DNA from: a virus
DNA: 50,472 nucleotides
Direction: 5' to 3' (one strand)
IMG/VR virus record: IMGVR_UViG_3300042343_000358
Span: 1 to 50,472 of that record
Part shown: positions 24,084 to 44,328 of the stretch, in pieces
How positions within the stretch are numbered: position 1 is the first letter of the stretch
Layout: each line of letters begins with the position of its first letter
The notes under the pieces: model-generated
Told to the model about the DNA's origin: nothing
The model's input: only the letters and a program-made list of their open reading frames with translations
Databases searched by the model: none
Translations under genes and position numbers: made by a program

Positions 24084-25016
24084 ATGGCAACAACATCATT
24101 ATGGGTTGAGAAATATCGCCCAAAAACAATTGACAGTTACGTATTTAGAGATCAACAGCAGAAAAATCAAATAGACGGGTGGATTAAACAACAAAGTATC
24201 CCACACTTGTTGTTTAGTGGTAGTGCAGGTATTGGTAAAACTACCCTTGCAAAGATTTTGTTCAATGAACTTGACATTGATCCATTGGATATTTTAGAAA
24301 TTAATGGTTCAAGGACTAACTCAGTCGACGATGTACGTAATGCAATTACTAACTTTGTACAAATGATACCATTTGGTGATTTTAAAGTAGTGTTACTAGA
24401 CGAAGCAGATTATTTAACAGTTAATGCACAAGCAGCCTTACGTGGAGTTATGGAGGAATATCATAATACTGCAAGATTTTTACTTACTTGTAACTATCCA
24501 CATAAAATCATTCCAGCTATCCATTCAAGATGTCAAGGATTCCATATAGAAAAAGTAGATATTGTTGAATTTACTGCAAGAGTTGCTACTATATTAGTAG
24601 AAGAGAACATTGAATTTGATTTAGATACGCTTGATACATTTGTTAAGGCAACTTATCCAGATTTACGTAAATGTATTAATACAGTACAGATGAATAGTTT
24701 AAGTGGAACACTTGCGTCACCGTCACAAAGCGATACAGGAAGTAGCGACTATAAAGTAGAAATGGTTGAGCTATTTAAAGCAGGTAAAATATCCGACGCA
24801 CGCAAATTATTGTGTTCACAAGCACGTCCAGAAGAGATGGAAGAAATCTACAGATGGTTGTATTCAAATTTAAATTATTTAGGAACTAATGAACGACAAC
24901 AAGACAAAGCTATCTTAATTATTAAACAAGGGCTAGTTGATCATACAATTTGCGCTGATAGTGAAATCAATCTTGCAGCCGTACTAATCCGACTTGCTCA
25001 CAATTTAGAATCATAA
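24084..25016 (+). CDS. 44: Sliding clamp loader large subunit, gp44-like AAA+ ATPase (310 aa)
   Basis: It begins LWVEKYRPKTIDSYVF, the RFC/gp44 box II start. Walker A is SGSAGIGKTT (about residues 46-54), Walker B VVLLDEAD (about 103-109), then an ARFLLTCNYPHKIIPAIHSR segment containing sensor 1 and the SRC arginine finger. The length is close to T4 gp44 (319 aa). With gp62 it uses ATP to open and load the gp45 clamp on primed DNA. No gp62 homologue is recognised in the window. A consensus sigma-70 promoter and an AAAAAGG ribosome site precede it. Its last 50 bases overlap the antisense HNH endonuclease gene. Confidence 0.93.
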   Translation: MATTSLWVEKYRPKTIDSYVFRDQQQKNQIDGWIKQQSIPHLLFSGSAGIGKTTLAKILFNELDIDPLDILEINGSRTNSVDDVRNAITNFVQMIPFGDFKVVLLDEADYLTVNAQAALRGVMEEYHNTARFLLTCNYPHKIIPAIHSRCQGFHIEKVDIVEFTARVATILVEENIEFDLDTLDTFVKATYPDLRKCINTVQMNSLSGTLASPSQSDTGSSDYKVEMVELFKAGKISDARKLLCSQARPEEMEEIYRWLYSNLNYLGTNERQQDKAILIIKQGLVDHTICADSEINLAAVLIRLAHNLES

Positions 25017-25746
25017 CTAACCATCCTACACATTTACCAGAGGTAGGAGAGGATCCTCTCCTACCTGCTCCTCTCATAGTAGACGCCGGTAAGTTGTGCA
25101 TTTTACAAAACTCATCCATACTACCAAAAATTATAAACACTTCCCCGGTTGGACTAATAATTTTCCATGTTTTTGCATTAGGATTGTTACTGCCACTAAC
25201 ATTTGCATGATTCTTTGACATATTTAATTTATGATCTTTTGAAATTTCTCGCCCTACTAATGATTTGGATATTTTTGTGCGAGTTGCTAATGAAGTAACC
25301 TTTCCTAGTCTAGCAACTCGTAACTGATTAGCTACATGTGCAGGTTGAGGTTTTCCTTTACGAGCTGCACTCATTTTTGCCCGGGTTTCAACCGATACGT
25401 GTTGTTTAGCTGCACTCATTTTAGCTTTAGTAATCGCCGAATGCGTTTTACCTTTAGCTGCAGTATTAAGTTTACGTTTAATCCATCCGTATGATTTATT
25501 ATTAACTCGGTTATTGGTTTTTGACCCTACGCACATTAAATTTGCAGCATACACTAATTTATGATTATCTGGATAGATTTTTACAAGTAGTTGATGTGCT
25601 ACATAATGAGCCTCTGGTGTTAATCTTACTAAATTGCGGTGATCATTAGATCCACCCATACACCGCGGTATTATGTGATGCTTTTCTGTATAGTCTGCAA
25701 TCATATCCTTTGCAGTTAGTTGTTCGTAGATTCGTTGATAGTTCAT
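24967..25746 (-). CDS. HNH homing endonuclease with NUMOD-type repeats (259 aa)
   Basis: The HNH core EKHHIIPRCMGGSNDHRNLV and LTPEAHYVAH (residues about 21-50) has the double His, central Asn and final His of the family. Downstream, repeats of the form K-M-S-A-A-K/R-x-G (TKAKMSAAKQHVS, TRAKMSAARKGKP, TRTKISKSLVG, KLNMSKNHA) are NUMOD3-like DNA-binding units, then a NUMOD1/helix-turn-helix-like end (FGSMDEFCKMHNLPASTMRG). GGAGAAG precedes the ATG. The gene is antisense to, and its last 50 bases overlap, gp44, as expected for a free-standing homing element landed just after a conserved replication gene. Its intended target is probably the gp44 region of a related phage (inference). Confidence 0.9.
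   Translation of the reverse strand: MNYQRIYEQLTAKDMIADYTEKHHIIPRCMGGSNDHRNLVRLTPEAHYVAHQLLVKIYPDNHKLVYAANLMCVGSKTNNRVNNKSYGWIKRKLNTAAKGKTHSAITKAKMSAAKQHVSVETRAKMSAARKGKPQPAHVANQLRVARLGKVTSLATRTKISKSLVGREISKDHKLNMSKNHANVSGSNNPNAKTWKIISPTGEVFIIFGSMDEFCKMHNLPASTMRGAGRRGSSPTSGKCVGWLVMILNCEQVGLVRLQD
25041..25066. repeat. Perfect 26-bp palindrome
   Basis: AGGTAGGAGAGGA is followed at once by its exact reverse complement, centred on GGATCC. As RNA it can form an 11-bp stem with a GATC loop in either transcript. It lies inside the 3' part of the HNH gene, 25 bases beyond the gp44 stop. No T-run follows on either strand, so it is not a standard intrinsic terminator. Confidence 0.9.
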
Positions 25747-33451: not shown

Positions 33452-35746
33452 ATGGTCGAACCAAGCGAAAAACTACAAGCAATTTTTGACAAAGCAATAA
33501 CTGCTGCAAAAAATATGCATCACGAGTATGTAACACTTGAGCATGTTCTGTTTTCAATGCTCACAGAAGACGACGCATTTACTAATTCGTTACAACACTT
33601 TGGCGCTGATGTAAATTTTTTAAAGGGCACTGTACTCGATCATTTACAATCTAAATGCCATGAAATTACTACAGTAGAAGTAGTAGTTAAACCAAAAAAA
33701 ACACAAGCAGTTGAGAGATCATTAAATCGAGCATTTACTCAAGTGTTGTTTAATGGTGGTACCCGTATTGAACCAGCTGACTTTTTCTTAGCAATGTTAG
33801 GGGAAAAACGATCATGGGCATTCTACTATGTTGCACAAGTTAACATTACAAAAGAAAAATATGCAGAGTACGTGCAAAATGTTATGTCAGACGACGATTC
33901 ATCATCTGACACAATTAAACCAAATGCACAAATGCACAAAGCATTGCAAGCGTACACTACTAATTTAAATGACGAAGTTAAAAATAATAAAATTGATCCT
34001 GTTATCGGTCGGGTTGATGAATTAGAACACATTGCACTAGCATTAGGCCGTCGCAGCAAAAACAATGTTATTATGGTAGGCGATCCAGGTGTAGGTAAAA
34101 CTGCAATTGCCGAAGGTCTTGCATATAACATCGTAAATGGTGCTGTTCCTGAGTTTTTAACTGATTATACTGTATATAATTTAGACATTGCAGCTATGCT
34201 AGCAGGTTCTAAGTACAGAGGCGACTTTGAAGAACGATTTAAACAAGTTATTAAGTCGTTGCAAAAACTTGGTAAATGCGTGTTATTCATTGATGAAGCT
34301 CATATGATTAGCGGAGCAGGCGCATCAGGTAGCTCATCTAACGATTTAGCTAATATGATGAAACCTGCATTAAGCAAAGGTAACATTAAAGTTATTGCAA
34401 GTACAACTTGGGATGAATATCGTAAACACTTTGAAAAAGATCGAGCATTGATGCGCAGATTCCAACGTATTACAGTTGACGAACCTACACAAGAAATGAC
34501 TTTACAGATTCTTAAAGGTATTAAGAAGTATTACGAAGGCCATCACAAACTTAAAATTAAAGATGAAGCACTACAAGCGTCAATTAAACTATCTGTAAAA
34601 TATCAAGCAGATAAAAAATTGCCAGATAAGGCTATTGACTTAATTGACTGCGCTTGCTCACGGTTTAATTTAAAACTTGCTGATCATCGTGTAGTTACAG
34701 AAGCTGATATTCAGTTTGAATTAGCTAAAATGGTCAACATGCCAGTTGAACAGATTATGCAAACCGAAACTAGTTCATTAGCATCATTACAAGACAAGTT
34801 AGAAGCAGAAGTATTTGGTCAAAATACTGCGTTAACTGAAATCGTTGATAAGATCATGGTTGCACAAGCAGGTTTAAAATCAGAAAACAAACCAATTGGT
34901 AGCTTTGTGTTTATGGGGCCAACAGGTTGTGGTAAAACTGAGACTGCTAAAGCACTTGCTAAACACTTGAGTACTAAGCTATTACGCTTTGATATGTCAG
35001 AATATCAAGAGAAACACAGTATTAGTAAGCTTATTGGTAGTCCTCCAGGTTATGTAGGGTTTGAAGATAACGCAGGATTGTTAATTACTCAAATACAAGA
35101 AAATCCTAATGCGGTATTGTTGTTTGATGAGATTGAAAAGTCACATCCAGATGTATCAACTGTACTATTACAGATGATGGACAACGGGTTTATTACTGGA
35201 TCTAATGGTAAACAAGCTGATTGTCGACATATTGTACTAATTTTAACTACAAATGCTGGCGCACAAACTGCAGAAAAGAATCAGATTGGATTTGGTACAC
35301 AAGAAAAAGACTATTCGGATGCAGATCTTAAGAAGTTTTTATCACCTGAGTTCCGTAACAGGTTAGACGGTGTTATTACGTTTAATAAACTAGGGAAAGA
35401 CGTGATGATTAAAGTAGTTAACAAGTTTATTGACGAAGTTCGTAATCAAGTTAAAGATAAAGGTGTTAAAATTAAGATTGATAAAGCTGCAACTCAGTGG
35501 TTATTAGATAAAGGTTTTGATTCTAAAATGGGTGCTAGACCATTACATCGCATTATTGATAAAGAAATCAAGCGAGATCTTGCTAAAATGATGTTATTTG
35601 GTGACCTTAGATCCGGCGGATGGTTAACAATTTCAGTATTACACGATTCGTTAATATTGTTAGCTAAACCTAAACTAGCTAAAGTTCCGTTAATATCAGC
35701 ACCAAGCGAATACGATCAAATGTTTAATGTTGAAGATGCAGATTAA
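33452..35746 (+). CDS. ClpA-like AAA+ unfoldase with ClpP-docking loop (764 aa)
   Basis: Domains in order: a Clp N-terminal repeat domain (HHEYVTLEHVLFSMLTEDDA, residues about 20-140), first AAA+ module (Walker A GDPGVGKT near 210, LFIDEAH, sensor RFQRITVDEP), second module (GPTGCGKTE near 489, AVLLFDEIEKSHPDV) and a D2 C-terminus (MGARPLHRIIDKEIKRDLAK). No ClpB-type middle coiled coil is present, so it is ClpA/ClpC-like. Pore residues KYRGDFEERF and GSPPGYVGFE are intact. NQIGFGTQEKD near residue 612 contains IGF, matching the IGL/IGF loop that docks on ClpP. No ClpP gene is in the window, so host ClpP is the likely partner (inference). Own sigma-70-like promoter, next to dnaJ. Confidence 0.92.
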   Translation: MVEPSEKLQAIFDKAITAAKNMHHEYVTLEHVLFSMLTEDDAFTNSLQHFGADVNFLKGTVLDHLQSKCHEITTVEVVVKPKKTQAVERSLNRAFTQVLFNGGTRIEPADFFLAMLGEKRSWAFYYVAQVNITKEKYAEYVQNVMSDDDSSSDTIKPNAQMHKALQAYTTNLNDEVKNNKIDPVIGRVDELEHIALALGRRSKNNVIMVGDPGVGKTAIAEGLAYNIVNGAVPEFLTDYTVYNLDIAAMLAGSKYRGDFEERFKQVIKSLQKLGKCVLFIDEAHMISGAGASGSSSNDLANMMKPALSKGNIKVIASTTWDEYRKHFEKDRALMRRFQRITVDEPTQEMTLQILKGIKKYYEGHHKLKIKDEALQASIKLSVKYQADKKLPDKAIDLIDCACSRFNLKLADHRVVTEADIQFELAKMVNMPVEQIMQTETSSLASLQDKLEAEVFGQNTALTEIVDKIMVAQAGLKSENKPIGSFVFMGPTGCGKTETAKALAKHLSTKLLRFDMSEYQEKHSISKLIGSPPGYVGFEDNAGLLITQIQENPNAVLLFDEIEKSHPDVSTVLLQMMDNGFITGSNGKQADCRHIVLILTTNAGAQTAEKNQIGFGTQEKDYSDADLKKFLSPEFRNRLDGVITFNKLGKDVMIKVVNKFIDEVRNQVKDKGVKIKIDKAATQWLLDKGFDSKMGARPLHRIIDKEIKRDLAKMMLFGDLRSGGWLTISVLHDSLILLAKPKLAKVPLISAPSEYDQMFNVEDAD

Positions 35747-36342: not shown

Positions 36343-36350
36343 TATAAATA
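36343..36350 (+). promoter_or_regulatory. T4-type late promoter box TATAAATA
   Basis: Exact TATAAATA, 24 bases upstream of the ATG at 36374, at the head of the long plus-strand cluster running to 43953. Confidence 0.65.
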
Positions 36351-36373: not shown

Positions 36374-36748
36374 ATGCGTATTACAGATCTACTTGAAAAC
36401 TCTCACTTTAAAGGTGAGGAGTTTATTAAACAAACTGACGACGGCAATGAGATTGATTTTGACTTAGCTGAAGATTTAGTTTTCTTTTTAAATAACGACG
36501 ACGATGCATATCGCCGTCATTTGCTACCCGCAGTACACACGTTTATCGATAAGAAAAAAGCAGGTAAAGATATTAAGTATACTATTTTTAAAACTGCAGT
36601 AGCAGATGGTTATAAACGGTATACTAAAGAATATCCAATGCGTGAATTGCCAGAAGATATTGATGCTAAAACATGGAAAGCAGCTTGTAAACAACTGTTT
36701 GATGAAGTATCTAAAGATATGAAAGATGGTAGTTACGATCACAATTAA
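36374..36748 (+). CDS. Late hypothetical protein with capsid-targeting-like leader (124 aa)
   Basis: It begins MRITDLLENSHFKGEEFIKQ. The first eight residues resemble T4 internal-protein leaders (MKTYQEFIAE) and end in L-L-E, matching the (I/L)-x-E cleavage rule of the T4 prohead protease gp21. The rest is acidic and helical (FDLAEDLVFFLNNDDDAYRR, DAKTWKAACKQLFDEVSKDM). An exact late promoter precedes it. Packaging inside the capsid is a hypothesis based on the leader and on the similar leaders of genes at 38892, 39557 and 39870. Its body matches nothing I recognise. Confidence 0.72.
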   Translation: MRITDLLENSHFKGEEFIKQTDDGNEIDFDLAEDLVFFLNNDDDAYRRHLLPAVHTFIDKKKAGKDIKYTIFKTAVADGYKRYTKEYPMRELPEDIDAKTWKAACKQLFDEVSKDMKDGSYDHN

Positions 36749-36771
36749 CATTATTACATAGAGGTAACACT

Positions 36772-38484
36772 ATGGCAGGAATTGCACATCCGGAAGATCT
36801 TATCATTAATGAAGGATCTAAAGGAGCCCAACGAGCAGTTAATGAATTAACTAGTCTTTCTTATAACACTAACACATTAACTATTAAATGGGACGGATTT
36901 CCTGCTATAGTTTTTGGTCGTGATAGTAATGGCACCTTAGTGTTTGTTGATAAACACATGTTCAAACAAATTGCTGCTGGCAACCTTAAGTTTACTACTA
37001 TTAGAGATTATGACGCTAGTCGTAACGTTAATCGTAGCGATCTTTGGAGCAAAGAAGATATATTACGTCCTGCATTAGATAGAATTATACCAAATGTTAC
37101 TGATACATATTACATGGGCGACTTGCTATGGGCAGGTATACCAGATAGTATCGGTGATTCATTTGTGTTTAAACCTAATACAGTTGAATATAGGGTTAAT
37201 CACAACAGCAATTTAGGTCAGTCTATTGCTAACAGTGTAGGCGGTATTGCAGTACATACATTCTTTCCAGGATTAACTGCAGACGATGAACCAATTACAG
37301 GATTTAACGGATTTTCAGAATGTAAAGACATTACGTTTATTGCAACTGAAATGACAACTAAGCCAAATATTGTAGTAAACAGCACACTAGTATTAAATGC
37401 ACAACACGCTATTGCAACACACAGCACCGCTGTAGACGTGTGTATTGCTAAAATAACTGCAGCTAAGTGTAAATGCGTAATTAATGCAATGGGACCATTT
37501 ATTACAAGTATGATTGAATCTGAAGATCTAGAAACAGACATTGTTACTAGATTTATAGAGTTTGCTACACCAAGGTTTACTAAATCTGTTACAGAAAAAC
37601 TATGTAAACCAACCGGTCAGTTCCATATTGACATATATAAAGGGCTAATAGGATTGTGGGAAATATGGAGTGCAATATCTAATCTTAAATTAGATATTAA
37701 ACAACAAATTGATACGCAACAAGTACACAGTGCAGTGCAACCTATAATAAATAGTATTATAAGTCATGAAGGTTACGTTATAGGCGCAGGTAACACTAAG
37801 TTAAAAATTATTAACAGATTAGAATTTAGCCGAGCCAACTTTTCTAAATACAAAGTGTCAGCTGAAGAAATTGAAGCAAAAGGTAAAATGCCAATGGCAA
37901 CTTTTTGTTTTGGTAGAATGAATCCTCCTACAGTTGGACATAAAAAAGTTATACAGAAAACCGTAGAACTTGGAAAAGAACATGCATATATATTTGCAAG
38001 TAGTAAATGCGATCCATCTAGTGATCCATTAGATTATGAAGTTAAGACTGAATTTATTAAAAAGATTCATCCTGACTATTCTAATTTTATGGTAACAGAA
38101 TATGTTAGAGACCCATGGCAAGCTGCATGCTGGTTATATGATAGAGGTTATAGGCATATGACATTTATAGCAGGTAGCGATAGATTAGGTACAGGTAGTA
38201 GAAGTTTAGAAACTGCGCTTAATAATTGGAATAGCGGGCCATCTCGTACTGTCGATTACGCACGTGGTCCAACCGGTAGAGAACATGTAGTTATAAAATT
38301 TGTTAGTTGTGGTGATCGTAAAGACTCTACAAATAATGTTAGTGGTACATTAGCACGCGAATACGCTAAAATAGGTGACAAAATTAATTTCCAACTAATA
38401 ACTGGTGTAAGTGAAGATATCACAGTCTGTGGTAAAACATTATATCAAGCAACTAGAGAGGGAATGAATTGCACAACGGAATGA
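36772..38484 (+). CDS. Ligase-like nucleotidyltransferase fused to an NMNAT-like adenylyltransferase (570 aa)
   Basis: The N-terminal part has TIKWDGFPAIVFGRD with K39-W-D-G42, which fits motif I (KxDG) of ATP-dependent DNA/RNA ligases and capping enzymes, and YYMGDLLWAG near 113-122 in the place of motif III. It resembles uncharacterised cyanophage proteins beginning MAGxxHPED. The C-terminal domain (from about residue 373) starts TFCFGRMNPPTVGHKKVI, a GRxxPxxxGH version of the HxGH cytidylyl/NMN adenylyltransferase motif, followed by AYIFASSKCDPSSDP and near 523 VSGTLAR, equivalent to the ISGTxxR end motif. Two AMP-transfer folds on one chain suggest NAD or RNA-end chemistry (inference). 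It lies in a late cluster of putative capsid proteins. Motifs IV and V of ligases are not clear. Confidence 0.8.
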   Translation: MAGIAHPEDLIINEGSKGAQRAVNELTSLSYNTNTLTIKWDGFPAIVFGRDSNGTLVFVDKHMFKQIAAGNLKFTTIRDYDASRNVNRSDLWSKEDILRPALDRIIPNVTDTYYMGDLLWAGIPDSIGDSFVFKPNTVEYRVNHNSNLGQSIANSVGGIAVHTFFPGLTADDEPITGFNGFSECKDITFIATEMTTKPNIVVNSTLVLNAQHAIATHSTAVDVCIAKITAAKCKCVINAMGPFITSMIESEDLETDIVTRFIEFATPRFTKSVTEKLCKPTGQFHIDIYKGLIGLWEIWSAISNLKLDIKQQIDTQQVHSAVQPIINSIISHEGYVIGAGNTKLKIINRLEFSRANFSKYKVSAEEIEAKGKMPMATFCFGRMNPPTVGHKKVIQKTVELGKEHAYIFASSKCDPSSDPLDYEVKTEFIKKIHPDYSNFMVTEYVRDPWQAACWLYDRGYRHMTFIAGSDRLGTGSRSLETALNNWNSGPSRTVDYARGPTGREHVVIKFVSCGDRKDSTNNVSGTLAREYAKIGDKINFQLITGVSEDITVCGKTLYQATREGMNCTTE

Positions 38485-38487
38485 ATA

Positions 38488-38895
38488 ATGAAACGATATA
38501 CAAACGAAGATATAAAAGAATTTGAGCTTGCATTGGACGAAATGCGAGTTACTGTACTGCGCGAAGAGAAGTTACGTAAAGGTGTTAGAGATGCATCGCC
38601 GGGCATGGCTGCGTGGCCTGCATTAAACAACAACAACAATCCATATCATGCTTATAGATTTGGGATGGCACTAGCAAGTGCACCGGATAACAAAGTAACA
38701 AAAGAAGGCCCGGTTGGCGGTGATTTTATTACAATGTCGTATACAGACGGTGATGAAAAGATTCTAAACTCTGCTGCAAAACAATTTGGTATTAGTAGCA
38801 AATCAATGGGATCGTCTAAAAAGTCAGCTGAGTTACCAGATGTTCATAAATCTAGTCCCGTTGCTACTAAAAAAAGAAATCGGTATGGTATATGA
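38488..38895 (+). CDS. Hypothetical protein, paralogue of the next gene (135 aa)
   Basis: Starts three bases after the fusion gene stop. The N-terminal 45 residues are charged and helical (NEDIKEFELALDEMRVTVLR). From residue 46 it reads DASPGMAAWPALNNNNNPYH, then AYRFGMALASAPD, ITMSYTDGDEKILNSAAKQF and ends KSSPVATKKRNRYGI. These elements recur in order in the next gene (MYRFGVDMAGSPDD, VTLSYSDEDQKIIDKSKKKM, SPVANVKRNKYGV), so the two are paralogues; this one lacks the MKIxEIISE leader. Function unknown; a virion-associated role is inferred from the cluster. Confidence 0.75.
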   Translation: MKRYTNEDIKEFELALDEMRVTVLREEKLRKGVRDASPGMAAWPALNNNNNPYHAYRFGMALASAPDNKVTKEGPVGGDFITMSYTDGDEKILNSAAKQFGISSKSMGSSKKSAELPDVHKSSPVATKKRNRYGI

Positions 38896-39296
38896 AAATT
38901 AAAGAAATTATATCGGAATCAGAAACTGGCAATACTGATGCGTCTGGACAAGCTGGAAAAATAGGCAAGTCTGGAAAAATGCATGACCATTTTAAGTCTT
39001 CAATAAAAGGAATGCATACTTACACCGGACCGCACACATATTACGATATGTATAGATTTGGTGTTGATATGGCCGGAAGTCCAGACGACGAGCACAATTA
39101 CGATCCTGCAAGTCCAGTTGCTAACCAATTAGTTACGCTATCTTATTCTGATGAAGATCAAAAGATTATTGATAAAAGTAAAAAGAAGATGGGACTTACA
39201 AGTAAACAGCTAACCCCAAACGATAGCAAAGAACCATCTAATACTAACAATACTAGTCCCGTAGCTAACGTAAAAAGAAACAAATACGGAGTTTAG
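38892..39296 (+). CDS. Putative capsid-targeted protein with MKIKEIISE leader (134 aa)
   Basis: The start overlaps the previous stop as ATGA. The leader MKIKEIISE-SETG ends with I-S-E, matching the T4 gp21 prohead protease rule. The body has GKMHDHFKSSIKGMHTYTGP, MYRFGVDMAGSPDD and a C-terminal SPVANVKRNKYGV, shared with the upstream paralogue. It is Lys, Ser and Gly rich with no membrane segment. If processed, about 125 residues would stay inside the head. No known enzyme motif. Confidence 0.78.
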   Translation: MKIKEIISESETGNTDASGQAGKIGKSGKMHDHFKSSIKGMHTYTGPHTYYDMYRFGVDMAGSPDDEHNYDPASPVANQLVTLSYSDEDQKIIDKSKKKMGLTSKQLTPNDSKEPSNTNNTSPVANVKRNKYGV

Positions 39297-39299
39297 CAT

Positions 39300-39560
39300 G
39301 TGAAACAATATAAAATAACATCAGAAAACATTCTACAAGACAGTCCCGAGGACTGTTTTCTTGCGCCTGACGATCCAATACACGAATTAAAAATTGCGCA
39401 CCATTTAGGTGGGTTAGGATCTGCTGCTCGTCTACATGAATATCGTGCTAATAAAATGCAAGAATCATTTATTACAGATGAACGCGGCAAGTATCAGCGT
39501 GAAAATAATATCAAACCCGGGACTCCTGCATGGTTTGAACTATGGAGTAAACCATTATGA
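39300..39560 (+). CDS. Small hypothetical protein, GTG start (86 aa)
   Basis: The start must be GTG at 39300: the ATG two bases earlier runs straight into TGA, and GGAG lies nine to ten bases upstream. The protein begins MKQYKITSENILQDSPEDCF and contains GGLGSAARLHEYRANKMQES and a C-terminal IKPGTPAWFELWSKPL that echoes the SPGMAAWPAL segment of the gene at 38488. The leader-like KITSE lacks the I/L three residues before the cut that gp21 prefers. The stop overlaps the next start as ATGA. Confidence 0.7.
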   Translation: MKQYKITSENILQDSPEDCFLAPDDPIHELKIAHHLGGLGSAARLHEYRANKMQESFITDERGKYQRENNIKPGTPAWFELWSKPL

Positions 39561-39847
39561 GAATTAGAGAAATTATTTCGGAAATGGCATCTGCAGGCGC
39601 GACTAGTGCTGCAAATGTTGGAGTAGGACCAGTTGTTCTTGGTAAAAATAAAGGTGATAAAAAGTATACAGGTTCTCCAGGTAAAAGCGGCACCCATGCA
39701 ACACCAGTTAAAACTATATCTAAGAAAAATAAAGATGGCACTGTAGTAAATGCATTAGACATGACAGGAAAGACAGGTAATCTATTTGGCACAGCAATAG
39801 GTGAGGGTGGGAACTTATTTTCCGGCGGAACTATTAAAAGAGGCTAA
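39557..39847 (+). CDS. Putative capsid-targeted protein with MRIREIISE leader (96 aa)
   Basis: The leader MRIREIISE-MASAG is nearly identical to that of the gene at 38892 and ends in I-S-E. The body is Gly, Lys and Ala rich (VGVGPVVLGKNKGDKKYTGS, PGKSGTHATPVKTISKKNKD, GTVVNALDM) and likely disordered. I associate this composition with many short proteins of uncultured T4-like phages. GGAG lies about ten bases before the ATG, and the start overlaps the previous stop as ATGA. Role inside the head is inferred. Confidence 0.75.
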   Translation: MRIREIISEMASAGATSAANVGVGPVVLGKNKGDKKYTGSPGKSGTHATPVKTISKKNKDGTVVNALDMTGKTGNLFGTAIGEGGNLFSGGTIKRG

Positions 39848-39869
39848 ATATACAATAACGGAGTTTACC

Positions 39870-41099
39870 ATGAACAACAGAAAAAAACTTTCAGAATTTG
39901 CAGGTCTAGAAGTAGAGTTGCCAAAAATTGAATTACCAGAACCAAACATTGACATCTCATCAGACGAACTTCACCATGACGGCCATAATATTGAAGCAGA
40001 CGACGAAGGTGCAATGGTTAAAGCTGACTTATACAAGTTGGCAAAATATAGCGTTAAATTATTTAAAAAAATAGAAGACGAAGATCAATTTGAATCTTGG
40101 GTACAGGCTAAAATTACAAAAGCTGCAGATTATATTTCTTCAGTTTACCATTACCTAGAATACGAAATGAAGTTTAGCGAATACGGCGATAAGATAGAGA
40201 ATAGCGATATGTACTCAGAAAGTGAAAAAAGACAAATGAAAAACGCATTAATGGAAGCAAAGAAATCACTTGCTGCCCTTAAAATTGACCAAGCTGATAA
40301 ACTTGATAAAACTAAAACAGTTAAAGAAAGCGTATCGCATACATGTGCAGAATGCGGCGGTACTGGTATGGTTGAAAAACCACTTCCAGAACGTACTCAA
40401 AAATTAGTAAAAAAACATAGAATTTTACGTAACTTTGTTCAATCAAAAGTTGATGCTGACGGCAACGGTATACCGGATGCAGAAGAACAACCAAAAAAGA
40501 AAGCAATGGATGACGAGATTGTAACTACAAAAGAACAATCTAAAAAATCAGCTCCTAAAAAAGAAAGCGGAAATCCATTTGCTAAAAAATCTAAAGATAG
40601 CGATAGTGATTGTGACGATGACAAACCAAAAAGCAAAGCTCCTAAAAAAGACAGCGGAAATCCATTTGCTAAAAAATCTAAAGATAGCGAATCAGATTCA
40701 GATGCACCTAAAAAACCTAAAAAAGATGATTCTAAAACAGAAGGCATCTATGGTGGATCAGTTTATGGCGAATCAGTTGCTCCTGTTAAAAAACCAAGCA
40801 GTGTAGCTGATAAAAAAGGTGGAAACCCATTTGCTAAAAAAGATGACGCTAAAAAAGAAGGCGGCAAAGAATTTGGAAAAGCATTAGATAAAGCTAGATC
40901 AGAATTAAACACTGTTAAAGAATCTGCTAAAGAAAAAGCTAAAAAAGATTACGACAAAGATGGCAAAATTGAAACTGGTGAAGAAGAGCATAAAGGTTCT
41001 GTTGATAACGCAATTAAATCATCAAAAGAAAAAGAATGCATAAAAGAATCAGTTGAGTTGAGCCGTTTAAGAGAACTTACCTCACGAGTAATTAGATAA
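39870..41099 (+). CDS. Acidic/basic repeat protein with zinc-knuckle and EF-hand-like loops (409 aa)
   Basis: I start at 39870, after AACGGAG, rather than at an in-frame ATG at 39801 inside the previous gene. The leader MNNRKKLSE-FAG ends in L-S-E. A helical region (about residues 50-135) precedes SHTCAECGGTGMVEKP, a single DnaJ-type CxxCGGTG knuckle. VDADGNGIPDAEE and DYDKDGKIETGEEE look like EF-hand-type calcium loops. Between them lie S/G-GNPFAKK repeats (three copies) in a charged, probably disordered region built partly by an 87-base tandem repeat. KES sites (TVKES, TVKES, CIKES) recur, one matching I-x-E. Such proteins could be scaffold or core components; that is inference. Confidence 0.78.
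   Translation: MNNRKKLSEFAGLEVELPKIELPEPNIDISSDELHHDGHNIEADDEGAMVKADLYKLAKYSVKLFKKIEDEDQFESWVQAKITKAADYISSVYHYLEYEMKFSEYGDKIENSDMYSESEKRQMKNALMEAKKSLAALKIDQADKLDKTKTVKESVSHTCAECGGTGMVEKPLPERTQKLVKKHRILRNFVQSKVDADGNGIPDAEEQPKKKAMDDEIVTTKEQSKKSAPKKESGNPFAKKSKDSDSDCDDDKPKSKAPKKDSGNPFAKKSKDSESDSDAPKKPKKDDSKTEGIYGGSVYGESVAPVKKPSSVADKKGGNPFAKKDDAKKEGGKEFGKALDKARSELNTVKESAKEKAKKDYDKDGKIETGEEEHKGSVDNAIKSSKEKECIKESVELSRLRELTSRVIR
40551..40690 (+). repeat. Direct repeat, 53-base units 87 bases apart
   Basis: Bases 40551-40603 and 40638-40690 match at 52 of 53 positions, beginning GCTCCTAAAAAAGA. They encode APKK(E/D)SGNPFAKKSKDSD/E. The high DNA identity suggests recent duplication or slippage. Confidence 0.85.
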
Positions 41100-41101
41100 T
41101 C

Positions 41102-41692
41102 ATGGATATGAAACAAATTCTACAAGCAATGGATTCTGTTAAAGTATCTGCTCCTGTAGAAAACACAGATGATATGAAAAAATTCATGTCAATTGTAACA
41201 GAAGGATCGTCACCACATAAAGTTGCATTACCTGTTCAAATGGCAATGCAGCATTATGCAACTCCGGTTGAAGACGAACTATCTAACAATCGACCATCTA
41301 GGCCATCGTTGCTTAAACAATACATGGCTGAAGCTTCTGCAGAACAAGAAGCAGCTCTTTATACTAAATCAGCTGACATTAAGCAGTATGCTCAAAAAAT
41401 TGCATACAAAGTAATGGGCGAAAACGCCGTTCCTGGTCACTCACCTGGTTTTAAACCAGTTGGTCCTGGTATACAAACACCAGAATCTGCAGAGAATCCT
41501 CAAGATGTAGTTAAAGTAGATATTCCATTACTTATTCGCTTACTTGAATATGCTAGAGAAGATGCACAAACTGATATGGATTTACATAACGTTACTGAAA
41601 TGTTAATCAAATTAAGTGCAAATGGTGACGTATTAACTATGGATAATTATGATCAAATTGTAAATGATCAAAGGACAGACGATGAATTTTAG
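41102..41692 (+). CDS. Conserved hypothetical protein (196 aa)
   Basis: It follows the previous stop by two bases. An alternative ATG lies six bases in. The N-terminal half is flexible (MKQILQAMDSVKVSAPVENT, LLKQYMAEASAEQEAALYTK); the C-terminal half contains VVKVDIPLLIRLLEYAREDA then QTDMDLHNVTEMLIKLS, a segment I recall from T4-like aquatic phage proteins of unknown function. No leader or membrane segment is clear. Overlaps the next gene by 11 bases. Confidence 0.75.
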   Translation: MDMKQILQAMDSVKVSAPVENTDDMKKFMSIVTEGSSPHKVALPVQMAMQHYATPVEDELSNNRPSRPSLLKQYMAEASAEQEAALYTKSADIKQYAQKIAYKVMGENAVPGHSPGFKPVGPGIQTPESAENPQDVVKVDIPLLIRLLEYAREDAQTDMDLHNVTEMLIKLSANGDVLTMDNYDQIVNDQRTDDEF

Positions 41693-43031
41693 AAATTTAA
41701 TAGCCACATTAGATAACATCGACCAACCCGTTCTATTAGAAACATTAACCCTTTCAGCAATACTTGCATTAACTGCTGGATACGAACAAGACGACAAAGT
41801 TCGCATTCCTAAGTTAGCAGAGCTTGCTAAACAAAACGGACTAGAAGGGTTAGTTGATCCAGTTACTGGAAATTATGTATCTAATGATGGGGATGAGGAT
41901 GACGAAGTACCATTTGAAGTAGCTGAAAAATTATCAGCAGCTGGATTACTTCCAAAAAATGCAAAACTTCCACAGGCTGGTTGGTTTGATAACAATCGAG
42001 TATTTGATGCAGCTAATGCAAACTTACAGCAACAAAGCTCAAGCATTTCTGCACGTCACGATGAGTTAGCCGATATAATGCATCAACTACGTGAGCTTAT
42101 TAAACAAATGATAGCATTACGCGACAAACACGCAACAAGTAAAATGGGCAGTGAGATTGGTGATAAACCAGTTCTTCCATCAAATGCACCATCTGCACTT
42201 GCAGCTAAAATGACTCCAACATTCCCATCTCAAACAATGGCAGGTATGCATGAGTCGGCAGGTTTAGCGGATGCACTTATAGAGTCTTTTGGGTACGCTG
42301 ATGAATCTCACCCACTGTCATCAGCTAGCGCATTCTATGCGCAGAATATGGGTTTAAATGAAGATTTAAAAGATCAAGAATGGTCGTTTACTCGGCCATC
42401 TGCAGAACCAAAACCATCTGCTGCTAAATTATCCGGAATGAATGTAGATGATCTTGCAAAATCTTCATCTAAAGGGCTTGGCGCAGGTGAAAAACTTGCT
42501 AAAACAGGTGCAAAGGAATTTTTAGGTAAAACAGCTGCTAGATTAGTTCCAGGTGCATTAACTGCATATGACGCAGCTGATGCATATGATAGGTATAAGA
42601 AAGGTGATTACCTCGGAGCTGGTATTTCCGGCGCTGCCGGACTTGCATCATTAGTACCCGGAATTGGCACAGGCGTAGGTACAGTATTAGATTTAGCAAA
42701 TTTGTATCGTGATTGGAACGATCCTAATTCAAACGAACCTGTTACTAATACCTCACCTATAACTAATACCCCACCTGCTACAAATACTGAAAAATCGCAA
42801 ACTGCACCACCTGTTAAACCAGAAGCTCCGGTTGCGCCAGTTGCTCCTGTTAAATCAGTACCGCATAATAGACATACTGGAACTGCACCAAAAGGGCATA
42901 CACAGTCTAGTAAGCGGACTCCATCCGCAAAATCAATTAGTGCTAATGAATTTCAACAATACCTAAAATCGTTAGGTGCAAATAATGGTGATATTAGTAC
43001 ATCAGTTAACAGATATATTTTAGGAAAGTAA
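41682..43031 (+). CDS. Large late protein with glycine-zipper hydrophobic segment (449 aa)
   Basis: I use the ATG at 41682 (MNFRNLIATLDNIDQPVLLE), preceded by AAGGA; an in-frame ATG 18 bases upstream lacks a ribosome site. A helical N-terminal half includes ISARHDELADIMHQLRELIK. Near residues 290-350 ALTAYDAADAYDRYKKGDYL is followed by GAGISGAAGLASLVPGIGTG and VGTVLDLANLYRDW, a Gly/Ala-rich hydrophobic hairpin seen in membrane-active or pore-forming proteins. The C-terminus is Pro/Thr rich. The segment could insert into the host membrane during DNA entry, as internal ejection proteins do; this is inference. Confidence 0.75.
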   Translation: MNFRNLIATLDNIDQPVLLETLTLSAILALTAGYEQDDKVRIPKLAELAKQNGLEGLVDPVTGNYVSNDGDEDDEVPFEVAEKLSAAGLLPKNAKLPQAGWFDNNRVFDAANANLQQQSSSISARHDELADIMHQLRELIKQMIALRDKHATSKMGSEIGDKPVLPSNAPSALAAKMTPTFPSQTMAGMHESAGLADALIESFGYADESHPLSSASAFYAQNMGLNEDLKDQEWSFTRPSAEPKPSAAKLSGMNVDDLAKSSSKGLGAGEKLAKTGAKEFLGKTAARLVPGALTAYDAADAYDRYKKGDYLGAGISGAAGLASLVPGIGTGVGTVLDLANLYRDWNDPNSNEPVTNTSPITNTPPATNTEKSQTAPPVKPEAPVAPVAPVKSVPHNRHTGTAPKGHTQSSKRTPSAKSISANEFQQYLKSLGANNGDISTSVNRYILGK

Positions 43032-43035
43032 CCAA

Positions 43036-43953
43036 ATGAAATCAAAAACAATAGCAGAATCAATTGCAGATTTAAGAAACAAATTAGATTCTATTGAATC
43101 ATCTACTGCATCTACCATATTACAAGAATCTACCCAACCATTAAATAGATTACATGCTCATATGCAAACTATTGAACAAGAATACTTAGAAGAAGGATTA
43201 CTTGGTAGTACTATAGGCGGAATTAAAAACTATGGGAGAGGGGCATTCTTTCAACCTGCAAGAGGCGCAGCAAAAGATTGGGAACTTGCATCAGATGCAG
43301 GAAAAACTGCTGCTAACTTTGGAAAAGCAACAACTATCGGTGCCGGTGCAGGTGGCGTTATATCAGCTGACAGATTGTATATGGGTAAAGATAATCCAAT
43401 ATCGTATCTTAATCCATTTGATTATGGAAATGCGCATCCTGAATGGAATACAAGCGAATGGAAACCGACTGATCCTGTTTCTTCAGAAAAACCTCCAGTA
43501 ACTTCAGAAAAACCTCCAGTAATTCCAGATGTTCCGGACAATTCTAACACCCATGGCGGCGATGCAAAACCACACGCCGGATTACAATATGACCCAAAAG
43601 TTGAAAAATTACAACAATTTTTAAATGGTCAAGGTGCATCATTAGCAGTTGATGGGAAATTTGGACAGCATACCCAAGCAGCATGGGAAGACTATCAACA
43701 ACACAAATTAAGTAGTCATAGCTCAACACCTAATGTACCTGACGTGCCTAATGTACCTGACGTGCCTAATGTACCTGATGCATCAGCTCCACCTGTTGCA
43801 ACGCCAAATGCTAATGCCGATGCTGATTTTAATGCGCAAATGAAAGCAATTCAGGATCAATTCAATCAGCTTGCACAACGTGCTCAAGGATTATCAAAAG
43901 ATCCTAACGTGAGTCAAGAAATAACTGATATAGTAAAAAACGCAGGTCTTTAA
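43036..43953 (+). CDS. Peptidoglycan-binding, probably virion-associated protein (305 aa)
   Basis: The N-terminus is helical (MKSKTIAESIADLRNKLDSI). Near residues 90-120 a Gly/Ala-rich segment (TTIGAGAGGVISADRLYMGK) recalls the previous gene. Near residues 190-220 DPKVEKLQQFLNGQGASLAV then DGKFGQHTQAAWEDYQ matches the PG_binding_1 fold (Q-x-x-L...VDGxFGxxTxxAxxxFQ). Pro-rich linkers with tandem repeats (SEKPPVT and NVPDVP units) flank it. The C-terminus is helical (MKAIQDQFNQLAQRAQGLSK). No catalytic domain is seen, so it may anchor to the cell wall at entry. A terminator follows. Confidence 0.8.
   Translation: MKSKTIAESIADLRNKLDSIESSTASTILQESTQPLNRLHAHMQTIEQEYLEEGLLGSTIGGIKNYGRGAFFQPARGAAKDWELASDAGKTAANFGKATTIGAGAGGVISADRLYMGKDNPISYLNPFDYGNAHPEWNTSEWKPTDPVSSEKPPVTSEKPPVIPDVPDNSNTHGGDAKPHAGLQYDPKVEKLQQFLNGQGASLAVDGKFGQHTQAAWEDYQQHKLSSHSSTPNVPDVPNVPDVPNVPDASAPPVATPNANADADFNAQMKAIQDQFNQLAQRAQGLSKDPNVSQEITDIVKNAGL
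43481..43522 (+). repeat. Two identical 21-base units
   Basis: Two perfect copies of a unit beginning CTTCAGAAAAACCTCCAGTA encode SEKPPVT/I repeats in the linker of the peptidoglycan-binding protein. Confidence 0.85.
43732..43778 (+). repeat. Tandem 18-base repeat, about 2.6 copies
   Basis: Units AATGTACCTGACGTGCCT, perfect in the first two copies, encode NVPDVP repeats in the Pro-rich linker. Confidence 0.88.
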
Positions 43954-44073: not shown

Positions 44074-44328
44074 ATGAGTAGAGCATACGGTCCAGAAGAA
44101 AAAGCTAAACTTGAAAAATTAATTACCGAAGGTTCTTTAGTTTTACGTGAAGTCGAAGACTTACAAGCTGGCTTAAAAGATACTGTAAAAGCAGTAGCAG
44201 AAGAATTACAAGTCAAACCTGCAGTTATAAATAAGGCTATCAAGATAGCCCATAAAGGAAATTGGCAAGATCATAATGAAGATTGGGAAGAAGTTGAAGC
44301 AATCTTAGACATTACAAAACGTATTTAA
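44074..44328 (+). CDS. dsbA: DsbA-like dsDNA-binding protein (84 aa)
   Basis: MSRAYGPEEKAKLEKLITEG and DLQAGLKDTVKAVAEELQVK then PAVINKAIKIAHKGN match my memory of the DsbA family of T4-like phages: small, charged and helical with a KDxVKxxAEELxxKPxVxNKAxxxAxK core. T4 DsbA (89 aa) binds double-stranded DNA and helps late transcription. Length and layout fit. AAAGGAG precedes the ATG and a consensus sigma-70 promoter drives it, consistent with expression before the late phase. It heads the unit leading to the Cys-rich mini-protein and DNA polymerase. Confidence 0.82.
   Translation: MSRAYGPEEKAKLEKLITEGSLVLREVEDLQAGLKDTVKAVAEELQVKPAVINKAIKIAHKGNWQDHNEDWEEVEAILDITKRI

What the first reader, a model, noticed from the sequence alone, without database searches (positions are those of the whole stretch)
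36374..43953. Cluster of putative capsid-targeted proteins sharing M(K/R)I(K/R)EIISE leaders
Genes at 38892 and 39557 start MKIKEIISE and MRIREIISE, 36374 starts MRITDLLE, and 39870 starts MNNRKKLSE. In T4, ten-residue leaders such as MKTYQEFIAE target internal proteins to the prohead core and are cut by gp21 after (I/L)-x-E. The cluster has an exact late promoter at its head. If right, this is a large set of ejected internal proteins, which in T4 include anti-restriction factors.
Basis: partly seen in the sequence, partly recalled or inferred. Interest (0 to 1): 0.72.

Follow-up and report, generated by a model that had tools for sequence, protein, structure and literature searches.

The report
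Phage head-packing tags on unlike proteins
A giant, uncultured relative of phage T4 appears to put the same short, removable address tag on many unrelated proteins so that they are packed in the virus head and delivered with the DNA; cultured cyanophages carry the same kind of tag on enzymes already seen in their particles, which makes the idea easy to test.

Summary
It is weaker for 39870, and the cytidylyltransferase gene 36772 has no leader. The leaders match the T4 capsid-targeting sequence at the residues shown by mutation to matter: two hydrophobic residues for targeting, then hydrophobic-x-Glu for cleavage. In orthologues those positions are kept while the residues between vary. The tag is not confined to this cluster. 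A 372-kb relative, G001, which encodes the gp21 protease and gp23 capsid protein, has it on 13 of 520 proteins, against 0 of 1626 internal methionines and about 0.1 in shuffles. A second relative, G002, has 8 of 559. Bodies include a HicA domain, an acetyltransferase and T7-kinase-like proteins. The related jumbo phages GAP32 and Vibrio 2.275.O lack this enrichment. Outside support: in cyanophage S-CREM2, 5 of the 6 proteins fitting the T4 register are in the published virion proteome (p = 0.003), and virion cytidylyltransferases of three cyanophages carry such a leader. Best reading: a T4-type capsid-targeting system, expanded onto many cargos. Cleavage, packaging and injection in this phage are inferred, not shown.

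The parts
36343..36350 (+). T4-type late promoter element TATAAATA at the head of the cluster
   Evidence: exact match; also present upstream of the G001 orthologue; TATAAATA within -40..-14 marks 3/13 leader genes vs 9/520 of all genes in G001 (Fisher p=0.0009) and 2/8 vs 6/559 in G002 (p=0.003)
36374..36397 (+). capsid-targeting leader MRITDLLE| of gene 36374
   Evidence: M1 R2 I3 L6 L7 E8 invariant in 13 unique orthologues while positions 4 and 5 vary
36374..36748 (+). gene 36374, 124 aa, leader protein of unknown body
   Evidence: no PHROG or Pfam match; AlphaFold model of low confidence, pLDDT 61, residues 1-14 below 50
36772..38484 (+). DUF6267 (KxDG ligase-like motif) fused to a cytidylyltransferase/NMNAT-like domain; no leader
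   Evidence: PF19782 5.8e-36, phrog_3041 1.8e-25; separate neighbouring genes in cyanophages, where only the cytidylyltransferase has a leader
38488..38895 (+). paralogue of 38892 without the short leader; conserved [LIM]-[RQ]-E site near residue 26
   Evidence: alignment A2
38892..38918 (+). capsid-targeting leader MKIKEIISE|S of gene 38892
   Evidence: 8 unique orthologues: E9 invariant, hydrophobic at 3, 6 and 7, residues 4 and 8 free
38892..39296 (+). gene 38892, 134 aa, leader protein
39557..39583 (+). capsid-targeting leader MRIREIISE|M of gene 39557
   Evidence: 9 unique orthologues: I6, I7, E9 invariant; variant leaders in L012 and L023/L033 still end in x-E just before the conserved AS stretch
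39557..39847 (+). gene 39557, 96 aa; residues after the leader (ASAGATSAANVG) resemble the mature start of the relatives' capsid protein (ES|PTAGATSAGNVATL)
   Evidence: MCP is among the top 4 of 520 G001 proteins but the jumbo-phage score (38-40) is not significant alone
39870..39896 (+). MNNRKKLSE|F: conserved cleavage-like L-S-E but no targeting register
39870..41099 (+). 409-aa Lys/Asp/Ser-rich repetitive protein with a CAECGGTG motif
   Evidence: weak match to the HTVC008M gene at 109288 (2.2e-5)
41102..41203 (+). candidate longer propeptide of gene 41102 ending KKFMSIVTE|G
   Evidence: F-x-x-I-[VI]-T-E kept in all listed orthologues
41682..41741 (+). candidate propeptide of gene 41682 ending VLLE|T
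   Evidence: 7 of 7 distinct orthologues end a variable-length N-terminus in L-x-E|[TGAS] just before conserved LTLS
43036..43059 (+). MKSKTIAE|S of gene 43036 (peptidoglycan-binding-like domain); candidate only
   Evidence: [IVL]-[AT]-E|S kept in five of the seven distinct N-termini listed; the other two were read from a later start; PF01471 5.7e-4, below its cut-off

Best explanation
The leaders are T4-type capsid-targeting sequences. Genes 36374, 38892 and 39557 (probably also 41102 and 41682, with longer propeptides) are made late. Their N-terminal amphipathic tag, M[KR]-Phi-x-x-Phi-Phi-(x)-E, binds the prohead core; the gp21-type protease then cuts after the Glu, leaving the bodies free in the mature head, from which they would enter the host with the DNA. 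The same tag has been grafted onto at least a dozen unlike proteins elsewhere in the genomes of this 372-kb T4-like lineage. Shown: the motif, its conservation, its N-terminal and genome-wide enrichment, the protease and capsid genes in relatives, and leaders of the same register on virion-detected proteins of cultured phages. Inferred: cleavage, packaging and injection in this phage.
For: (1) Register identical to T4 IPIII residues 4, 7 (targeting) and 8, 10 (processing) (PMC9026906). (2) Those positions are kept in orthologues while the ones between drift. (3) 13/520 N-termini vs 0/1626 internal Met in G001; 8/559 vs 0/1637 in G002. (4) gp21 (PF03420, E about 1e-26) and gp23 in G001, G002, G004; the capsid proteins carry L-[MI]-E|S and cultured relatives L-M-E|S or L-R-E|S. 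(5) Unlike bodies: HicA, GNAT, DUF6321, T7-kinase-like, metallopeptidase-like; Pfam domains of GNAT and HicA start at residues 14 and 21, after the leader. (6) Same locus, different cargo: three leader genes in G001, one kinase-like leader gene in G002. (7) Late promoter association. (8) S-CREM2: 5 of 6 proteins with the T4 register are in the virion (p = 0.003): SAM hydrolase, kinase, cytidylyltransferase, gp13, gp136. (9) Virion-detected cytidylyltransferases: MKNFSSFLTE|A (S-CREM2), MRFRQFIIE|A (S-SZBM1), MKSFLQFLKE|A (S-SCSM1). (10) CBB_210, 60% MS coverage, is the orthologue of GAP32_204 (MNKLQKILTE), whose Vibrio-phage look-alike MKDLNTILTE is matched by G001's leader protein MKSFKQHLLE|S.
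Against: No proteomics exists for this lineage. The cultured jumbo relatives GAP32 and Vibrio 2.275.O show no genome-wide enrichment (1 strict hit each). Some G001 hits are dubious cargo, e.g. an endonuclease-like protein at 97982. S-CREM2 gp175 and the S-SCSM1 gene at 44215 (MKTFKQFMSE) have leaders but were not seen in virions, and a looser motif is not enriched in S-CREM2 virions. The cytidylyltransferase, the best virion-linked enzyme in cyanophages, has no leader in this window.
Confidence: 0.75

Rival explanations
1. The tagged proteins are head core or structural components: the leader docks them to the scaffold and gp21 cuts them, but they serve assembly and are not delivered effectors.
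For: In T4, gp22, gp67 and gp68 are core proteins cut by gp21 (PMC9026906). Scaffold proteins of GAP32 and Vibrio 2.275.O begin MSKLDKFLNE|S and MSKLEQLLKE|S. Window gene 39557 resembles the capsid protein's mature N-terminus, and 39870 is repetitive and charged like core proteins.
Against: Does not explain HicA, GNAT or kinase-like bodies with the same leader, nor cargo swapping at one locus.
Confidence: 0.3
2. The motif is a chance or translational effect: AT-rich genomes favour Lys/Ile/Glu codons after ATG.
For: Genome G+C is about 36%; a looser motif has many false hits, e.g. HNH endonucleases MNYQKIYEQL.
Against: Shuffling residues 2-12 of each protein gives 0.12-0.18 strict hits against 13 and 8. 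GAP32, with the same G+C (0.356), has 1, and HTVC008M has two loose hits, neither strict. Selective conservation of the hydrophobic-x-Glu pattern argues against codon bias.
Confidence: 0.04
3. The N-terminal amphipathic helix is a localisation or degradation signal unrelated to the head, such as membrane or nucleoid targeting.
For: The signal is short and amphipathic; no direct packaging data exist for this lineage.
Against: The terminal Glu with a hydrophobic residue two before it is kept exactly as gp21 requires, and leaders of the same register sit on virion-detected proteins.
Confidence: 0.08

Closest known systems
T4 internal proteins IPI, IPII, IPIII and Alt with capsid-targeting sequences cut by gp21
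   Same: N-terminal tag of about ten residues, same hydrophobic register, cut expected after hydrophobic-x-Glu, unlike bodies, T4-type late promoter (for some), gp21-family protease and gp23 capsid in relatives
   Different: 9- and 8-residue versions M[KR]I.; far more tagged genes (13 strict in G001), scattered over the genome; bodies include HicA, GNAT and kinase-like domains; no homologue of T4 IPs found
Virion-associated enzymes of T4-like cyanophages (NMNAT-like cytidylyltransferase, APH/ChoK kinase, SAM hydrolase, Cas9-like nuclease)
   Same: leader of the same register on proteins detected in virions
   Different: published as virion-detected with carry-over in CsCl preparations left open (PMC10665884); the leader was not discussed in the passages read here; in the window the cytidylyltransferase is fused to DUF6267 and untagged
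Processed ejection proteins of phiKZ and SPN3US
   Same: many head proteins with propeptides cut after x-x-Glu by a gp21-family protease
   Different: motif S/A-x-E and an inner body in a different phage family; the short hydrophobic targeting tag seen here is not described for them in the passages read

Membership tests
T4-type capsid-targeting sequence (CTS) proteins | N-terminal leader of about 10 residues (T4: 10-19) with the targeting hydrophobics of IPIII residues 4 and 7 | tested here: met
   36374, 38892 and 39557: hydrophobic at 3 and 6 counted from Met, conserved in orthologues. 39870: not met
T4-type capsid-targeting sequence (CTS) proteins | gp21 site (I/L)-x-E closing the leader | tested here: met
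   Glu invariant; the residue two before it is I or L (for 36374, L-L-E)
T4-type capsid-targeting sequence (CTS) proteins | same leader on unlike bodies | tested here: met
   G001 and G002 leader proteins with HicA, GNAT, DUF6321 and kinase-like bodies
T4-type capsid-targeting sequence (CTS) proteins | gp21-family protease in the same phage | tested here: inconclusive
   Present in relatives G001, G002, G004; PF03420 is absent from the 50-kb window itself, which is a fragment
T4-type capsid-targeting sequence (CTS) proteins | late expression | tested here: inconclusive
   TATAAATA at 36343 and enrichment before leader genes, but most leader genes lack an exact match
T4-type capsid-targeting sequence (CTS) proteins | leader removed in the mature virion | not testable with these tools
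   needs N-terminal proteomics
T4-type capsid-targeting sequence (CTS) proteins | body packaged in the head and injected | not testable with these tools
   only indirect: virion detection of leader proteins in S-CREM2, S-SZBM1, S-SCSM1 and CBB
T4 IPI-type anti-restriction proteins | body related to IPI or another known restriction inhibitor | tested here: not met
   no Pfam or PHROG match of the leader bodies in the window to such a family

The most novel reading that the evidence does not exclude
This T4-like jumbo lineage carries a modular delivery system: a portable leader of 8-9 residues grafted onto a swappable arsenal of a dozen or more effectors, including a HicA-type RNase domain, T7-kinase-like proteins and an acetyltransferase, packed in the head and injected at the start of infection. 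The same tag explains the puzzling enzymes in cyanophage virions.
Probability: 0.45. Interest if true: 0.82.

Novelty: new variant of a known kind. Interest (0 to 1): 0.64.

Why it matters
Which phage proteins enter the host with the DNA is mostly unknown outside a few model phages. A readable tag would let injected effectors be predicted from sequence in uncultured phages. It also bears on an open question in the cyanophage literature: whether kinases, NMNAT-like enzymes and a Cas9-like nuclease in purified virions are real cargo or carry-over (PMC10665884 and PMC9602691 leave it open). A tag of the T4 register on those proteins favours cargo and says exactly which peptide bond to look at.

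Tried and rejected
Looser motif (hydrophobic-x-E anywhere at residues 7-13): not enriched in S-CREM2 virions (10 of 31, p = 0.16), so dropped. 36772 'LIINE|G' as a leader: rejected, since it aligns inside the DUF6267 domain and the Glu is lost in several orthologues. Capsid-protein mimicry by 39557: only suggestive in the jumbo phages (score 38-40, rank 2-4 against full-length proteins), though clear for S-CREM2 gp160 (score 95 vs 46 for the next protein). HMMs of the window genes against cyanophage proteins: only 36772 found clear homologues, plus a weak one for 39870. AlphaFold of 36374: low confidence, so no fold search was made. T4 itself was only partly fetched and not used as a scan control. 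No isolate-phage homologue of the G001 HicA protein was found. Literature search for capsid targeting together with cyanophage: one review only.

Full report
What is there. The window is a 50.5-kb IMG/VR fragment. Its cluster 36374-43953 holds ten forward genes. Three begin with a full leader: 36374 MRITDLLE, 38892 MKIKEIISE, 39557 MRIREIISE. TATAAATA, the T4 late promoter core, lies at 36343-36350. Gene 39870 begins MNNRKKLSE, which has the cleavage-like end but not the hydrophobic register. Gene 36772, a DUF6267-cytidylyltransferase fusion, has no leader.

The register. In T4 IPIII (MKTYQEFIAE; sequence from general knowledge and the finding) suppressor mutagenesis placed targeting at residues 4 and 7 and processing at 8 and 10 (PMC9026906). 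That is Phi-x-x-Phi-Phi-x-E. MKIKEIISE and MRIREIISE have the same pattern one residue nearer the start; MRITDLLE lacks the last x. In orthologues from 37 viral contigs the pattern positions are kept and the others vary: for 38892, MKIKEIISE, MKILEIITE, MRINELLNE, MRVIDIIKE, MKVYDILRE, MKIREIIKE. Gene 41682 ends a variable-length N-terminus in L-x-E|[TGAS] in 7 of 7 distinct orthologues, and 41102 keeps FMSI[VI]TE|G.

Not a local matter. Relatives G001 and G002 (372 kb) encode a gp21 protease and a gp23 capsid protein (PDB match to T4 gp23). In G001 the strict motif starts 13 of 520 proteins, against none of 1626 internal methionines and 0.12 by shuffling. The regex was written after looking at G001, so G002 was fetched as a replicate: 8 of 559, none of 1637, 0.18; several of the eight are orthologues of the G001 hits, so the two genomes are not fully independent. 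GAP32 and Vibrio phage 2.275.O, cultured phages with related capsid proteins (66-69% identity), have one hit each; GAP32 has the same base composition, so composition is not the cause. Genes were called with a simple script of my own, so some starts may be wrong.

Cargo. Bodies after the leader include a HicA domain (PF07927, 1.9e-8), a GNAT domain, DUF6321 (1.9e-23), two weak matches to the T7-type host-takeover kinase family (phrog_15752, 1.3e-5 and 0.0012) and a weak metallopeptidase match. At one locus G001 has three leader genes where G002 has a single, different one. An endonuclease-like hit (97982) shows that not every hit need be cargo.

Outside evidence. S-CREM2 has a published virion proteome (PMC10665884). 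Of its 219 ORFs six fit the exact T4 register and five are virion-detected (Fisher p = 0.003): SAM hydrolase MKDFDSFLEE, kinase (V/M)KRFDAFLTE, cytidylyltransferase MKNFSSFLTE, gp13 and gp136. The virion Cas9-like protein has RFASFMAE about 17 residues in. I had seen these N-termini before writing the regexes, so the T4-derived form is the fairer test. S-SZBM1 and S-SCSM1 virion cytidylyltransferases begin MRFRQFIIE|A and MKSFLQFLKE|A; S-CRM01 has MKLFNQFFKE|A on its cytidyltransferase and MISFDQFLSE on the kinase that PMC10665884 cites as virion-detected. Virion detection of the S-CRM01 cytidyltransferase itself was not checked. DUF6267 (gp141), untagged, is not on the S-SZBM1 virion list. 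In jumbo phage CBB, virion protein CBB_210 (PMC5259590) is the orthologue of GAP32_204, MNKLQKILTE; its Vibrio-phage look-alike MKDLNTILTE is matched by G001 MKSFKQHLLE (E 1.2e-8), while the GAP32-G001 link rests on resemblance only. Misses: S-CREM2 gp175 and the S-SCSM1 gene at 44215 have leaders but were not detected.

Capsid site. Capsid proteins of the lineage carry YLMES or YLIES and of GAP32 and Vibrio 2.275.O L-R-E|S and L-M-E|S, near the place homologous to the T4 gp23 cut as far as the alignment goes. The stretch after the leader of 39557 resembles the stretch after that site; the likeness is weak here but strong between S-CREM2 gp160 (virion) and its capsid protein.

Verdict. The leaders are best read as T4-type capsid-targeting sequences (0.75). 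The mechanism is known, and a review already suggests that the tag may let T4-like phages load various proteins; its extent here, the shorter register and the cargo are new. What the window bodies do is unknown, and delivery into the host is inferred from T4.

Noticed in passing
window 36772-38484; L001 8986-11044: DUF6267 and the cytidylyltransferase are one fused gene here but two neighbouring genes in cyanophages; only the separate cytidylyltransferase carries a leader, so the fusion seems to lack the tag.
   Followed up: partly
L066 28342-29235 (S-CREM2 gp160); L097 31121-31306 (S-SCSM1 gp97): Small virion-detected cyanophage proteins share the sequence just after the capsid protein's cleavage site (GFTGAAAPEGPVAGYDP), as if mimicking the mature capsid N-terminal arm.
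   Followed up: partly
L064 7704-10313 (S-CREM2 gp12); L093 5422-5973 (S-CRM01 gp128); L094 5716-8649 (S-H34): The Cas9-like nuclease of S-CREM2 and neighbouring genes in related phages have a leader-like RFASFMAE / SLDSFIKE / GFSSFLKE after an extra 16-17 residues that are themselves alike (SRW..W..G).
   Followed up: no
G001 246143-246385 (L057 6143-6385); G002 276173-276415: HicA-domain protein with a leader, without an obvious HicB partner next to it, 91% identical between G001 and G002.
   Followed up: partly
window 24967-25746; G001 239346, 333391, 345972: Several closely similar endonuclease-like genes starting MNYQKIYEQLTA, multiplied in these genomes; false positives of the loose leader motif.
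   Followed up: no
window 33452-35746: ClpA/B-like AAA+ protein (phrog_4871, E 5e-244) two genes upstream of the cluster.
   Followed up: no
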